Shown here in pieces: positions 36,862 to 43,877 of a stretch of DNA of 58,553 nucleotides. Below the pieces are notes generated by a model. The model saw only the letters and a program-made list of their open reading frames with translations, was not told where the DNA came from and did not search any database. Position numbers and translations under genes: made by a program. Source of the DNA: a virus; the IMG/VR virus record IMGVR_UViG_3300034018_002110, positions 1-58,553 of that record; one strand, 5' to 3'. Within the stretch, counting starts at the first letter, position 1. Each line of letters opens with the position of its first letter.

Positions 36862-37788
36862 ATGAGTGATTTTAATTCGCCAAAAGATCTTCTGAATGCT
36901 TATCGAAAAGGTTTTAATGGAGCGATCTGCGATCCAGAAGAAACGGCGACTTTGCTGGGTGAATTGAAAACACCTCTATTTGGAGCCGCTGCTTACAGAC
37001 TGTATGGGTCGGGAGAAGGAAAACTCTCGCTCCCATACAAGTCTCTTTTAAAATTTGACCCTAAGTTTGGTCCATCAGAAAGACAAGAAACGGGGGACTG
37101 CGTAAGTCATGCCACTAGGAACGCTGTTGACGTCACCCGAGCAGTAGAAATAGATGTACAGGGTGAATCTGAATCGTTCGAAGCCAGAAGTGCCACAGAA
37201 GGCATTTATCAAAGCAGAACCAACAGTGGTCAAGGTATGACCTGCTCCAATGCGGCTAAATACGTATCCACACAAGGTGGCATTTTATTGCGTAAGAATT
37301 ATGGAGCAATAGACTTATCTACCTACAATGCTAAGGTTGGTGCAAATAAAACTATTCCTCAGTCAATTTGGATCAACGAAGCTAAAAAACATCAAGTAAA
37401 AACTATATCGATGATAACAACCATACAAGAAGCCAGAGACGCTTTGGCCAACGGTTACGCTATCAGTGTTTGTTCTGGTTATGGATTCTCTTCCAAGAGA
37501 GACGGTAACGGTATCGCAGAAAGATCTAGCGGCTGGAATCATGCAATGGCTTGGATCGCATGTGATGACACAAAAAGTAAATTTAAAGAAATGTTATTTT
37601 TAGTTCAAAACTCTTGGGGTCTATGGAACTCAGGACCAAGGGTTCATGATCAGCCAGAAGGTAGTTTTTGGATCAGAGAAAAAGACGCCCGAGGAATGTT
37701 GGCCGAGCAAGGATCTTGGGTTTTTAGCAATGTTGATGGGTTCCCAGCTAAAGATCTACCAGATTATGGCACATCATCATTTTTATGA
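36862..37788 (+). CDS. Papain-like (C1-type) cysteine peptidase
   Basis: The catalytic order is seen: C80 in QETGDCVSHA, H227 in GWNHAMAW and N250 in VQNSWG. Length 308 aa. Such peptidases occur in many phages and in Planctomycetes. It may act as an endolysin-like or maturation protease; no signal peptide is present, so a holin would be needed for export. AGGAATATCAAA precedes the ATG. Confidence 0.8.
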   Translation: MSDFNSPKDLLNAYRKGFNGAICDPEETATLLGELKTPLFGAAAYRLYGSGEGKLSLPYKSLLKFDPKFGPSERQETGDCVSHATRNAVDVTRAVEIDVQGESESFEARSATEGIYQSRTNSGQGMTCSNAAKYVSTQGGILLRKNYGAIDLSTYNAKVGANKTIPQSIWINEAKKHQVKTISMITTIQEARDALANGYAISVCSGYGFSSKRDGNGIAERSSGWNHAMAWIACDDTKSKFKEMLFLVQNSWGLWNSGPRVHDQPEGSFWIREKDARGMLAEQGSWVFSNVDGFPAKDLPDYGTSSFL

Positions 37789-39825: not shown

Positions 39826-41442
39826 ATGCAAGTTACAAAACGTAATGGAGATAAGGAAAATTTTTCTGTAGAAAAAATTCATAAGGTTCTTGAGTGGGCT
39901 ACCAAAGACATCAACGGTGTAAGTTTTTCTGAGGTAGAAATGAATGCTAATCTATCTCTTTACGACGGAATGTTAAGCTCAGAGATTCACCAGATTTTAA
40001 TTAAATCGGCAAATGATTTAATCTCAACGCAAAGTCCAAATTATCAGTATGTTGCGGCTAGACTGCTAAATATGCAACTGAGAAAAGAAGTATGGGGCTG
40101 CGGCGACATCCCAACGGACTTTACGCTGTTCCTACAAAGGAACGTAGACAATGGTATCTATCACGATTACCTTTTAAACAAATGGATCGATGATACTAAG
40201 CCAAATGATCCGTATCACAAGGTACGTAATCTTGGAATGTACATAAATCACTCTCGTGACGATTTTTTTACATACGCTGGATTACAACAACTGATTGATA
40301 AATATCTTGTCAAAAACAGAAGCACCGGTGTTATCTATGAAACACCTCAGTACGCCTATATGTGTATCGCTATGTGCCTGTTTGATTCGTTAGAGGGTGT
40401 AAAACGTGCCTACGATTGCTACTCTACGTTCAAGATCAACCTGCCTACTCCTATCATGGCTGGAGTCAGAACCAATACCCGTCAGTTTGCAAGCTGTGTT
40501 CTTGTTGACGTGAATGATGATATAGACGGTATTTTTTCTAGCATCCACGCTGTTGGCAAGTATACAGCCAGAAGAGCTGGTATCGGTCTAAATATAGGAA
40601 GAATCAGACCGATCAACTCTCCAATCAGAGGAGGAGAAGTTATTCACACTGGCGTCATTCCATTCCTAAAAAACTTCGAATCAGCAGTAAAATCTACAAG
40701 TCAAAATGGCCTAAGGGGAGGGTCAGCGACCGCCCATATTCCATTTTGGCACTACGAGATTGAAGATGTCTTGGTTCTTAAAAATAACGCTGGAACTGAC
40801 GATAACCGTGTGCGAAAATTAGACTACTCAATTCAATTTTGTAAATTATTTTATGATCGTCTGATTGCAAATCAAGATATCACCCTGTTTAGTCCTCATG
40901 AAGCAAAAGGATTATACGAAGCTTTTGGTGACAACAAGAAGTTTGAAGAGCTTTATTTAAAGTATGAAAATTCTAGATCTTTAAAGTTTAAGAAGAAGAT
41001 ATCAGCCAGAAAATTGGCAGAAATTTTTGCTCGCGAAAGACTTGAAACTGGTCGAATTTATTCAATGAATATTGACAATGCCAATGAGCATGGATCGTGG
41101 AATATACCATGCTATATGTCTAATTTATGCGTAACCGGAGATACATCCGTGATGGTTGACGTGGAAGGGCAATTGTGTACAATCTCTATGGAGGAGGTAG
41201 TGCAGCTAGTTGAATATGGCAAGGAAGTTAAAATTCTATCTTCAAAAGATGGTTTAGATAGCTTTGAATTGATATCTGACGCCGCAATGATGAATGAAAG
41301 TGCGGAAATTCTGGAGGTTACAGATCTAGAGTCTGGCTTTGTCGTAAAATGTACTCCAGATCATAAAATCTATACCAAAAACCGTGGATACGTAATGGCG
41401 AAAGACTTAGAAGAGACGGACGAATTGCAGATAATGGAATGA
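39826..41442 (+). CDS. nrdA: NrdA N-terminal part fused to N-intein
   Basis: AAGGAAGAAA precedes ATG 39826. Residues 1-434 are the N-terminal part of class Ia ribonucleotide reductase large subunit: an ATP-cone (QVTKRNGDKENFSVEKIH) and the catalytic domain with ASCVLVDVNDD, LNIGRIRPI, RGGSATAHIPFWHYEIEDVL and YSMNIDNANEHGSW. The extein ends at CYMSNL. Residues 435-538 are an N-terminal split intein. With the part at 42164, splicing would give a 755-aa NrdA, the normal length. Reduces nucleoside diphosphates to deoxy forms. Confidence 0.95.
   Translation: MQVTKRNGDKENFSVEKIHKVLEWATKDINGVSFSEVEMNANLSLYDGMLSSEIHQILIKSANDLISTQSPNYQYVAARLLNMQLRKEVWGCGDIPTDFTLFLQRNVDNGIYHDYLLNKWIDDTKPNDPYHKVRNLGMYINHSRDDFFTYAGLQQLIDKYLVKNRSTGVIYETPQYAYMCIAMCLFDSLEGVKRAYDCYSTFKINLPTPIMAGVRTNTRQFASCVLVDVNDDIDGIFSSIHAVGKYTARRAGIGLNIGRIRPINSPIRGGEVIHTGVIPFLKNFESAVKSTSQNGLRGGSATAHIPFWHYEIEDVLVLKNNAGTDDNRVRKLDYSIQFCKLFYDRLIANQDITLFSPHEAKGLYEAFGDNKKFEELYLKYENSRSLKFKKKISARKLAEIFARERLETGRIYSMNIDNANEHGSWNIPCYMSNLCVTGDTSVMVDVEGQLCTISMEEVVQLVEYGKEVKILSSKDGLDSFELISDAAMMNESAEILEVTDLESGFVVKCTPDHKIYTKNRGYVMAKDLEETDELQIME
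41128..41439 (+). other. N-terminal split intein, 104 aa
   Basis: It begins with Cys1 in CVTGDTSVMV (block A) and contains KCTPDHKIYT (block B, TxxH-like) before ending in a stop codon instead of reading into a C-terminal half. Length and ending (DLEETDELQIME) match known naturally split inteins in NrdA/NrdJ-type phage genes. Confidence 0.9.
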
Positions 41443-41493
41443 TTTGTGTATTATAGGATAGATAATTTCTATTCCTACATGCGGAGATTGATC

Positions 41494-42180
41494 ATGCTAC
41501 ACTACGTCTACAAAATTACCTTCAAAACGACGCTAAAGACATACATTGGTATGACCAGCAAGAGTCCAACAGAGCGAATACATAAACATTATCTGAACTC
41601 CATAGCTGGGATTGATAGTCACTTGTATAGAGCTATCCGATTGTATGGCATTTCTGATTGCCTATTTGAAACACTCTCCAAATGCGAGTCTCAGGAAGAG
41701 GCTCTACGATTGGAAAAAGAATTTATTAAAGAAAACGACTCTATCGCAAATGGATACAATGAAAGTCAAGGAGGAGTTGGTGGATGGTGCGTTCCAGATC
41801 ATAAGCTAAACCAATGGAAGCAGAAGATTTCAAAAAGGTCTAAAGGAAAGAAGAATCCTAATGCCAATGCCATTTCCAACGAAGAAATTCTTGAGTACGC
41901 TATGAGTTTTTTTAAGAGCAATGACAACCGTCTGATACGTGCTAGATGGACTGAATACTCGAAAGAAAACGGATTGCCACTAACATATACCAAGTATCGT
42001 TTTGGAGGAGGTTATCAAAACTTTTTAGAGTCATTCAAGAAATTTTTATCAAAAAACGGTATTGACCACAATAAAGATTCGTTCGCTCTGACTAAAGATG
42101 AAAGATACAACGAAGAAGTCAATTTAAAAATTAGTAACACTATTAAACAGAGAAACGAGAAAAATGCTAAAAATCAATAA
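41494..42180 (+). CDS. GIY-YIG homing endonuclease between intein halves
   Basis: GGAGATTGATC precedes ATG 41494. The GIY-YIG core has YVYKITFKTTLKTYIGMT (4-21, YVY and YIG), R28 in ERIHKHY, E75 in EKEFIKEN and N89 in GYNESQGG. The C-terminal part is Lys-rich and may bind DNA. It lies in the gap between the two split-intein genes, where a homing enzyme would spread the cassette. It overlaps the following gene by 17 nt. 228 aa. Confidence 0.85.
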   Translation: MLHYVYKITFKTTLKTYIGMTSKSPTERIHKHYLNSIAGIDSHLYRAIRLYGISDCLFETLSKCESQEEALRLEKEFIKENDSIANGYNESQGGVGGWCVPDHKLNQWKQKISKRSKGKKNPNANAISNEEILEYAMSFFKSNDNRLIRARWTEYSKENGLPLTYTKYRFGGGYQNFLESFKKFLSKNGIDHNKDSFALTKDERYNEEVNLKISNTIKQRNEKNAKNQ

Positions 42181-42262
42181 GCTTAATAATGTCGAAAAGG
42201 TATTTGACGTTACTGTTAAGCATAATCACAACTTTTATGCCAATGGGGTTTTGGTAAGCAAT
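42164..42262 (+). other. C-terminal split intein, 33 aa
   Basis: MLKINKLNNVEKVFDVTVKH has block F and NHNFYANGVLVSN block G, ending in His-free VSN with terminal Asn, followed by Cys+1 of the extein. It pairs with the half at 41128. Confidence 0.9.
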
Positions 42263-43228
42263 TGCCAAGAAATTATACACCCCACGGTTCCAATCGAATC
42301 CATAAGTGATCCAAAAGGTGAAATAGGTATCTGCATTTTATCGGCACTCAACCTGCTAGAGTTGAACAATGAGAAAGATATTGAATTAGCTTGCAGAATC
42401 GCCGTACAGACTTTGGATTCTGTGATAGAATATCAAGAGTATCCAATCTTGGCTGGCGAAACTTTCACAAAGAACAGACGTTCTCTTGGTATTGGAATCA
42501 CTAATTTAGCTGGTTTTCTAGCAAAGAATAAGCTATCTTATAACGATGAAGCTGCATTGAAACTTGTTCATGAAACGATGGAGCAAATACAATGGCATTT
42601 GATAAACGCTAGTTGTGAATTAGCTGAATCTCTTGGGCCTTGTCCAAAGTTTAAAGATACGAAATATTCTCAAGGCTTGCTACCAATTGATTGGTATAAG
42701 AAAACGGTCGATGAGCTTGTTGAACCTAAATACAATATGGACTGGGAGGGTTTACGTGAAAGAGTCAAGAAACATGGTCTTCGCAATTCTACTTTATCTG
42801 CTATTATGCCTTGCGAAAGTAGTTCTGTCATTCAAAACAGCACCAACGGAATAGAACCAGTCAGAAGCTTATTGATCCACAAAAAGGCCAAGAACGGTGT
42901 TCTCAAGCAGCTTGTTCCAAACTATCACAGTCGAAAGAATTACTACACAATAGCTTGGGACATAAAAGACAATAAGTCTATTCTTAATATAGCCGCCGTG
43001 ATTCAAAAGTTTGTTGACATGAGCATGAGCACTAATTTATATTACAATTATTCTCATTATGCAGATGGAAACATTCCTCTCAGCGTGTTGATCAAAGATC
43101 AGATTTACGGTTATAAATATGGTCTAAAAAACTTCTATTATGCCAATACTCCGGATGGAGACAAAGAACATAATGAGATGTTGGGAGAAGAAGAAGGGGG
43201 GTGTATCGGTGGAGCATGTAGCATTTAA
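42164..43228 (+). CDS. nrdA: C-intein fused to NrdA C-terminal part
   Basis: After the 33-residue C-intein, Cys+1 begins the C-extein CQEIIHPTVPIES with the NrdA motifs ICILSALNL, RRSLGIGITNLAGF, STLSAIMPCESSSVIQNSTN and the redox-active C-terminus GGCIGGACSI. The extein is 321 aa. GAGAAACGAGAAAA precedes the ATG. The last 20 nt overlap the next ORF. Confidence 0.95.
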   Translation: MLKINKLNNVEKVFDVTVKHNHNFYANGVLVSNCQEIIHPTVPIESISDPKGEIGICILSALNLLELNNEKDIELACRIAVQTLDSVIEYQEYPILAGETFTKNRRSLGIGITNLAGFLAKNKLSYNDEAALKLVHETMEQIQWHLINASCELAESLGPCPKFKDTKYSQGLLPIDWYKKTVDELVEPKYNMDWEGLRERVKKHGLRNSTLSAIMPCESSSVIQNSTNGIEPVRSLLIHKKAKNGVLKQLVPNYHSRKNYYTIAWDIKDNKSILNIAAVIQKFVDMSMSTNLYYNYSHYADGNIPLSVLIKDQIYGYKYGLKNFYYANTPDGDKEHNEMLGEEEGGCIGGACSI

Positions 43229-43877
43229 GTTCTGCGCCAGTTGTCAAGAGAATAAGTCCATTTTATGTTTTGGGAAAGATAGAAGGTCTAAAGACGGATT
43301 TAGAGGGCGTTGTAAAGACTGCCGAAAGGCAGAAACGTCTACCCCGGAACAAAAAGAAATGGCTAAAAAAAGAAGGAAGCGTTATGACAACTCAGAACAC
43401 GGCAAGGCAATAAAAGCTGAGTATAGTAGAACTGAAACGGCTAGAATTTTGTCTAGAGCCAGAAATAAAAAGTATTCTTCTAAGCCCGATGTCTTCGAGA
43501 GAAGAAAGGCTTACGAACGAGATAGATTCAGTAATAATCTCAATTACAGATTGATATCTAACTTGAGATCTAGGTTATACGGAGCACTGAAGGGGACCAC
43601 TAAATCGGACCATACCATGAGGCTGTTAGGATGTGATGTCAGCCAACTGTGGGAACATTTAGAATCTATGTTTCAAGAGGGAATGACAAAAGAAAACTAC
43701 GGAAAGTGGCATGTCGATCATATAAAACCCTGCGCCTCGTTCGACATGTATGATCCAGAGCAGCAAAAACAGTGTTTTCATTACAGCAATCTTCAACCAT
43801 TGTGGGCGGAAGATAACCTTATAAAAGGTATACGAACAACTAGTAACGCAAAGGATTTGAATGAAAACAATTTTTAA
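43209..43877 (+). CDS. Free-standing HNH endonuclease with zinc finger
   Basis: GTG 43209 starts inside the end of nrdA; the frame is open further upstream. FCASCQENKS and CKDCRKAE form a zinc-finger pair at the N-terminus, a basic linker follows, and WHVDHIKPCASFDM plus HYSNLQPLWAEDNLIKG is the HNH active site. Such genes are mobile nicking enzymes that insert beside nrd genes in phages. It overlaps nrdB by 17 nt. Confidence 0.85.
   Translation: MEHVAFKFCASCQENKSILCFGKDRRSKDGFRGRCKDCRKAETSTPEQKEMAKKRRKRYDNSEHGKAIKAEYSRTETARILSRARNKKYSSKPDVFERRKAYERDRFSNNLNYRLISNLRSRLYGALKGTTKSDHTMRLLGCDVSQLWEHLESMFQEGMTKENYGKWHVDHIKPCASFDMYDPEQQKQCFHYSNLQPLWAEDNLIKGIRTTSNAKDLNENNF

What the first reader, a model, noticed from the sequence alone, without database searches (positions are those of the whole stretch)
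39826..43228. Fractured nrdA: natural split intein with a free-standing GIY-YIG gene between the halves
Extein N (434 aa) ends in CYMSNL and is followed by a 104-aa N-intein and a stop; 0.7 kb later a 33-aa C-intein ending in VSN precedes Cys+1 of extein C (321 aa). The joined extein is 755 aa, normal for NrdA. Split inteins in phage-type genes with an endonuclease in the gap are known as fractured genes, but those described used a Vsr-like enzyme as I recall; here the mobile element is GIY-YIG. Protein trans-splicing would be needed to make the essential enzyme.
Basis: partly seen in the sequence, partly recalled or inferred. Interest (0 to 1): 0.88.

Follow-up and report, generated by a model that had tools for sequence, protein, structure and literature searches.

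The report
Phage nrdA split by trans-splicing intein
A phage gene for ribonucleotide reductase, which makes DNA building blocks, is broken in two; each half ends in half of a self-splicing protein element that should rejoin the enzyme, and a selfish DNA-cutting gene sits in the gap. This is a clear new example of a known arrangement, and related loci show how such gene breaks arise, spread and become permanent.

Summary
nrdA is split directly before its thiyl-radical cysteine. The N-half ends in a 104-aa N-intein and the C-half starts with a 33-aa C-intein, both above curated intein cut-offs. Between them lies a 228-aa GIY-YIG endonuclease gene with an I-TevI-like catalytic fold. A near relative (L008) carries the exact empty site; 69 of 80 extein relatives are uninterrupted. 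The mechanism is most likely protein trans-splicing restoring a 755-aa NrdA, with the endonuclease homing into empty alleles; neither activity was tested. This is a 'fractured gene' (Dassa et al. 2009), so a new member of a known kind. GIY-YIG in place of a Vsr-like enzyme is not unique: 60 of 87 distinct related split-intein loci carry it, including an isolated Klebsiella phage. Two new points came from the relatives. First, the endonuclease usually sits behind a hairpin (44 of 58 spacers), often with a T4-type late promoter (30 of 58; 1.7 expected), as in I-TevI; the window keeps only a weak hairpin. Second, some loci lost the endonuclease but kept its last codons, which carry the C-half's ribosome-binding site, so the gene stays split.

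The parts
39826..41127 (+). extein N: NrdA residues 1-434 (ATP cone, all-alpha domain, first part of the barrel), ends ...CYMSNL
   Evidence: Pfam ATP-cone, Ribonuc_red_lgN, Ribonuc_red_lgC 1-213; aligns to E. coli NrdA from residue 6 to the Cys439 region
41128..41442 (+). N-intein (104 aa, Cys1, block B CTPDHKI) and stop
   Evidence: TIGR01445 E=1e-8 above cut-off; resembles solved split intein NrdJ-1 (8ubs), E=4e-11
41443..41493 (+). spacer with RNA hairpin just upstream of and partly covering the GGAG ribosome-binding site of the endonuclease gene; no late promoter here
   Evidence: fold z -1.8 to -2.4; relative L009 keeps the hairpin with a different sequence
41494..42180 (+). free-standing GIY-YIG homing endonuclease gene (228 aa)
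   Evidence: Pfam GIY-YIG, PHROG homing endonuclease, I-TevI catalytic fold TM 0.85, Tyr6/Tyr17/Arg28/Glu74/Asn89 invariant in 27 homologues
42164..42262 (+). C-intein (33 aa) with its own ATG, overlapping the endonuclease 3' end by 17 bp; ends ...VLVSN
   Evidence: TIGR01443 E=2e-7 above cut-off
42263..43228 (+). extein C: NrdA residues 435-755, starts at thiyl-radical Cys (E. coli Cys439 equivalent), and stop
   Evidence: Ribonuc_red_lgC 193-522; aligns to E. coli NrdA 439-761
43203..43877 (+). second mobile gene, HNH/endonuclease VII-like, between nrdA and nrdB; overlaps the nrdA 3' end; absent in L008
   Evidence: PHROG endonuclease VII E=7e-18; L008 nrdA stop abuts nrdB start

Best explanation
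A naturally split, mobile intein in the active site of a T4-superfamily phage class Ia ribonucleotide reductase. Steps. (1) nrdA is made as two proteins, NrdA(1-434)-IntN and IntC-NrdA(435-755). (2) The intein halves associate and trans-splice, joining Leu434 to the radical Cys435 and giving a 755-aa enzyme; neither half alone can be active, because the catalytic cysteine is the splicing nucleophile and the Cys225 and Cys439 equivalents lie on different halves. (3) The GIY-YIG enzyme cuts intein-free nrdA in co-infecting phages at or near the SNL|C codons, and repair copies the whole 1135-bp insert (41128-42262) into the break. (4) Its expression is held down by a hairpin at its ribosome-binding site. 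(5) The C-half is started from inside the endonuclease gene's 3' end. Shown by sequence: anatomy, conserved catalytic residues, exact empty site, recurrent architecture. Inferred: splicing, cleavage, homing, regulation.
For: Both intein halves above curated cut-offs. Cys+1 = E. coli Cys439; Cys225, Asn437, Glu441, Cys462, Tyr730/731 and Cys754/759 equivalents all present in the joined protein. Exact empty site in L008, a 91-93% DNA relative; 69 of 80 close extein relatives are uninterrupted with exteins abutting exactly. Same unit at the same codon in L009 and L011-L014 with endonucleases at 53-55% identity. Endonuclease has an I-TevI fold with invariant catalytic residues. Endonuclease divergence tracks the C-intein (r 0.905) more than the exteins (0.80-0.82). 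No group I intron at the site. Closest solved intein is the split intein NrdJ-1. The few nt differences between near-identical occupied contigs in the extein parts are silent.
Against: No splicing or cleavage data. The penultimate intein residue is Ser, not His; as I recall the active Npu DnaE intein also ends in SN, so this is tolerated in principle. The record is a linear fragment, so an intact nrdA elsewhere cannot be fully excluded. The window's own hairpin is weak (z about -2) and has no late promoter, unlike many relatives. The homing target was not mapped; the identical 83-bp run across the L008 junction is not unusual for this gene.
Confidence: 0.9

Rival explanations
1. The halves work as an unspliced, non-covalent enzyme, as in phage Aeh1 nrdA-a/nrdA-b split by mobE, and the intein pieces are relics.
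For: Aeh1 NrdA split by a homing endonuclease is functional as two peptides (PMC3653736, PMC10448857).
Against: Intein halves keep Cys1, block B TxxH, C-terminal Asn and Cys+1 here and in diverged homologues. The N-half would carry a 104-aa tail, and the C-half a 33-aa leader, directly at the radical cysteine.
Confidence: 0.05
2. nrdA is dead in this phage and the locus is a decaying mobile-element graveyard.
For: Two different endonuclease genes have invaded nrdA and its 3' edge.
Against: All catalytic residues kept; nrdB intact next door; extein differences between near-identical contigs are silent (few changes); exteins 72-79% identical to the same split locus in other phages.
Confidence: 0.03
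3. The interruption is a group I intron or an assembly or frameshift artefact rather than a split intein.
For: Phage RNR genes often hold group I introns with endonuclease genes (PMC3653736).
Against: No Rfam match at the site even at E<=1, whereas the same search finds one in KP13-7 nrdA; intein models match both flanks; same sequence in independent assemblies.
Confidence: 0.01

Closest known systems
Fractured genes with split inteins (Dassa et al. 2009, Nucleic Acids Res 37:2560; not held in the library, known here from citations and memory)
   Same: Conserved phage DNA-metabolism enzyme, including NrdA and NrdJ, broken by a split intein with a free-standing endonuclease gene between the halves (7 nrdA and 2 nrdJ GOS cases cited in PMC3653736)
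   Different: Gap enzyme here is GIY-YIG; the paper's headline family is Vsr-like (in about half of loci, from memory)
NrdJ-1 split intein (PDB 8ubs, 9omb)
   Same: Nearest solved intein by sequence (E=4e-11), also a split intein of a ribonucleotide reductase
   Different: Host enzyme is class II NrdJ (from memory), here class Ia NrdA
Yersinia phage vB_YenM_TG1 nrdA (KP202158)
   Same: Split intein at the same codon of NrdA, endonuclease ORF overlapping the C-intein start
   Different: Gap gene annotated as HNH homing endonuclease; strong hairpin with late promoter TATAAATA in the loop and ribosome-binding site in the 3' arm
Klebsiella phage KP13-7 nrdA (OP617745)
   Same: Homologous split intein and homologous GIY-YIG gene (43% local identity) in an isolated phage
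   Different: Intein sits one codon later (SNLC|C); the same gene also holds a group I intron and a second split intein
I-TevI of the T4 td intron
   Same: GIY-YIG catalytic fold (TM 0.85); hairpin and late-promoter control in many relatives (PMC2988022)
   Different: I-TevI lies in a group I intron, with RNA-level not protein-level splicing
Aeh1 mobE-split nrdA
   Same: nrdA split by a free-standing homing endonuclease
   Different: HNH enzyme and no intein; halves act without splicing (PMC3653736, PMC10448857)

Membership tests
Fractured gene (split intein plus gap endonuclease) | Conserved enzyme ORF divided by complementary N- and C-intein halves | tested here: met
Fractured gene (split intein plus gap endonuclease) | Free-standing endonuclease gene between the halves | tested here: met
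Fractured gene (split intein plus gap endonuclease) | Intein-free allele exists at exactly this codon | tested here: met
   L008 and 68 further loci
Fractured gene (split intein plus gap endonuclease) | Vsr-like gap endonuclease (typical, not defining) | tested here: not met
   gap gene is GIY-YIG
Split intein able to trans-splice | Cys1, block B TxxH, C-terminal Asn, Cys+1 | tested here: met
   sequence
Split intein able to trans-splice | Splicing activity in trans | not testable with these tools
   needs expression
GIY-YIG homing endonuclease | Catalytic motif and fold | tested here: met
GIY-YIG homing endonuclease | Cleaves intein-free allele and drives homing | not testable with these tools
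   indirect only: empty site and co-divergence
I-TevI-type late switch | Hairpin sequestering the RBS with a late promoter in the loop | tested here: inconclusive
   window: weak hairpin, no TATAAATA in the spacer; relatives: 44/58 hairpins with z<-2, 30/58 late promoter motif
Group I intron | Intron RNA at the insertion | tested here: not met
Aeh1-type non-covalent split nrdA | No intein at the break | tested here: not met
   intein halves present

The most novel reading that the evidence does not exclude
GIY-YIG-bearing split inteins form one of the commonest mobile modules in phage ribonucleotide reductases and act as a one-way gene-breaking ratchet. The endonuclease gene comes under I-TevI-type late control, its 3' end becomes the ribosome-binding site of the downstream gene half, and when it is later deleted those last codons stay, so the gene remains permanently split and dependent on trans-splicing. 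Loci L175, L178 and L220 look like such scars.
Probability: 0.5. Interest if true: 0.6.

Novelty: new member of a known kind. Interest (0 to 1): 0.45.

Why it matters
It puts an essential phage enzyme wholly under protein trans-splicing and gives many new natural split-intein pairs (87 distinct loci here, two in isolated phages) for biotechnology. The relatives make a standing question testable: how split inteins and broken genes arise and why they stay broken. It also warns that surveys demanding all RNR active-site residues in one ORF would miss fractured RNRs (inference; PMC12918982 found 18,717 sequences with all required residues and reports only 8 with inteins).

Tried and rejected
Group I intron at the site: no Rfam match. 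Second nrdA in this record or two near-identical contigs: none (fragments). Co-conversion footprint at the L008 junction: an 83-bp identical run, but about 18% of gene positions lie in runs that long, so not informative. dN/dS on occupied near-identical contigs: too few changes. Solved-structure sequence hits for the endonuclease: none meaningful; the fold search succeeded instead. Cellular homologues: only seven weak loci in genome contigs, mostly MAGs, 31% identity for near-full-length matches. Literature: Dassa 2009 is not held, and no held paper found describes GIY-YIG in split-intein loci.

Full report
Observation. NrdA residues 1-434 (39826-41127) run straight into a 104-aa N-intein (41128-41439) and a stop. 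A GIY-YIG ORF follows (41494-42180, 228 aa), then a 33-aa C-intein with its own ATG (42164-42262) and NrdA residues 435-755 (42263-43228). Both intein halves pass curated cut-offs (TIGR01445 E=1e-8; TIGR01443 E=2e-7). The spliced product would be 755 aa, 85.8 kDa. The window is a whole IMG/VR record, a linear fragment; neighbours include RIIA, UvsX, DnaB-like helicase, primase and PhoH, a T4-superfamily-like core set.

The break is in the active site. The first residue of extein C aligns with E. coli NrdA Cys439, the thiyl-radical cysteine (established knowledge). The other catalytic and redox residues are present in the joined protein. So the splicing nucleophile is the enzyme's radical cysteine, and neither half should work alone.

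Mobility. L008 is a close relative (91-93% DNA identity over the shared stretches) in which the exteins abut exactly and the 1135-bp insert is absent. Of 80 loci brought in by the N-half, 69 are uninterrupted with exact abutment, 10 are occupied and one is truncated. Near-identical occupied copies occur in six other metagenome contigs. More distant phages (exteins 72-79%) carry the same unit with endonucleases 53-55% identical. Across 47 loci the endonuclease distances track those of the C-intein (r=0.905) more closely than those of the exteins (0.80-0.82); the endonuclease and C-intein partly overlap in DNA, so this is supporting, not decisive.

The endonuclease. Tyr6, Tyr17, Arg28, Glu74 and Asn89 are invariant in 27 homologues. 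The AlphaFold2 model (mean pLDDT 86.7) matches the I-TevI catalytic domain (TM 0.85). The C-terminal half is helical and gave no solved relative.

Census of relatives. Two viral-contig scans (each capped at 80 loci) gave 87 distinct split-intein loci of this family: 60 with a full GIY-YIG gene of this type in the gap, 21 with other content, 2 contiguous and 4 truncated. In the scan made with the N-intein alone, which is not biased by gap content, 48 distinct loci split as 23 GIY-YIG of this type, 5 of a second GIY-YIG-like type (assigned by sequence resemblance; Pfam finds only NUMOD domains in the one scanned), 2 remnants, 5 HNH, 5 split without ORF, 2 contiguous and 6 other or truncated (gap classes partly assigned by eye with Pfam support). 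Two adjacent insertion points are used: before the radical Cys (SNL|C) and one codon later (SNLC|C). The GIY-YIG variant also exists in an isolate, Klebsiella phage KP13-7, and an HNH variant in Yersinia phage TG1.

Control of the endonuclease. In 58 distinct spacers between the N-half stop and the endonuclease start, 44 fold with z below -2, and 30 contain exact TATAAATA against 1.7 expected from shuffles, often in the hairpin loop. TG1 shows the clearest form: a stem with TATAAATA in the loop and AAGGAG in the 3' arm. This is the arrangement described for I-TevI and Aeh1 mobE, where early transcripts hide the ribosome-binding site and late ones free it (PMC2988022). Many sequences in the set are close kin, so the count is of sequences, not independent origins. 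The window has only the hairpin, adjacent to and partly covering GGAG, closer to the seg43(25) case in the same review.

Loss of the endonuclease. In 51 of 60 loci an SD-like 4-mer for the C-half lies within 22 nt upstream of its start, and the endonuclease ORF overlaps or abuts that start. L175, L178 and L220 lack the endonuclease but keep its last codons: L178 still encodes ELQISKQTKLHPGIGWIKGRKYGNKN*, matching the end of full genes such as L173 and L184, and also keeps the 5' hairpin arm. L203 and L230 hold remnants and group with intact relatives, and one intein clade holds HNH, GIY-YIG and empty gaps side by side, though the tree rests on few columns. The simplest reading is that endonucleases come and go while the split persists, because the C-half's ribosome-binding site lies in the endonuclease's 3' end. 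This is inference.

Verdict. It is a fractured gene in the sense of Dassa et al. 2009, which I could not read here; PMC3653736 cites it for 7 nrdA and 2 nrdJ cases. GIY-YIG is not rare in this setting. I therefore call it a new member of a known kind, with extra value from the census, the recurrent control element and the scar loci.

Noticed in passing
43203-43877: A second mobile gene (HNH/endonuclease VII-like) sits between nrdA and nrdB and overlaps the nrdA 3' end. In the window and in L049, which has a 59% identical gene there, the last ~20 NrdA residues (DGDKEHxxMLGEE...GGACSI) differ from the tail of the other relatives compared (DGDGxTEKDM...GACAI), as if the insertion replaced the end of nrdA.
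   Followed up: partly
L083 (Klebsiella phage KP13-7) 4029-9559: nrdA is interrupted three times: a group I intron (RF00028 E=1.5e-9) with an HNH_3 ORF, the split intein with GIY-YIG, and a second split intein near the 3' end with a 323-aa ORF (no Pfam match) in the gap. Making NrdA would need RNA splicing and two protein trans-splicing events.
   Followed up: partly
L175, L178, L220: Split-intein nrd loci without an endonuclease gene that keep the last codons of it, including the ribosome-binding site of the C-half.
   Followed up: yes
L198, L226: Contiguous mini-inteins at the same active-site cysteine, without endonuclease.
   Followed up: partly
L216: Split intein at the TNP|C motif, probably a class II reductase, with a 350-aa phage endonuclease I-like (weak Pfam match) ORF in the gap.
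   Followed up: no
L188: Split-intein gap holding a 91-aa TnsA-like nuclease fragment.
   Followed up: no
L120 vs L123: Exteins 66% identical but endonuclease 90% and C-intein 91% identical, suggesting recent transfer of the unit.
   Followed up: no
36862-37788: 308-aa ORF with a C...H...N layout resembling a papain-type cysteine protease, read by eye only.
   Followed up: no
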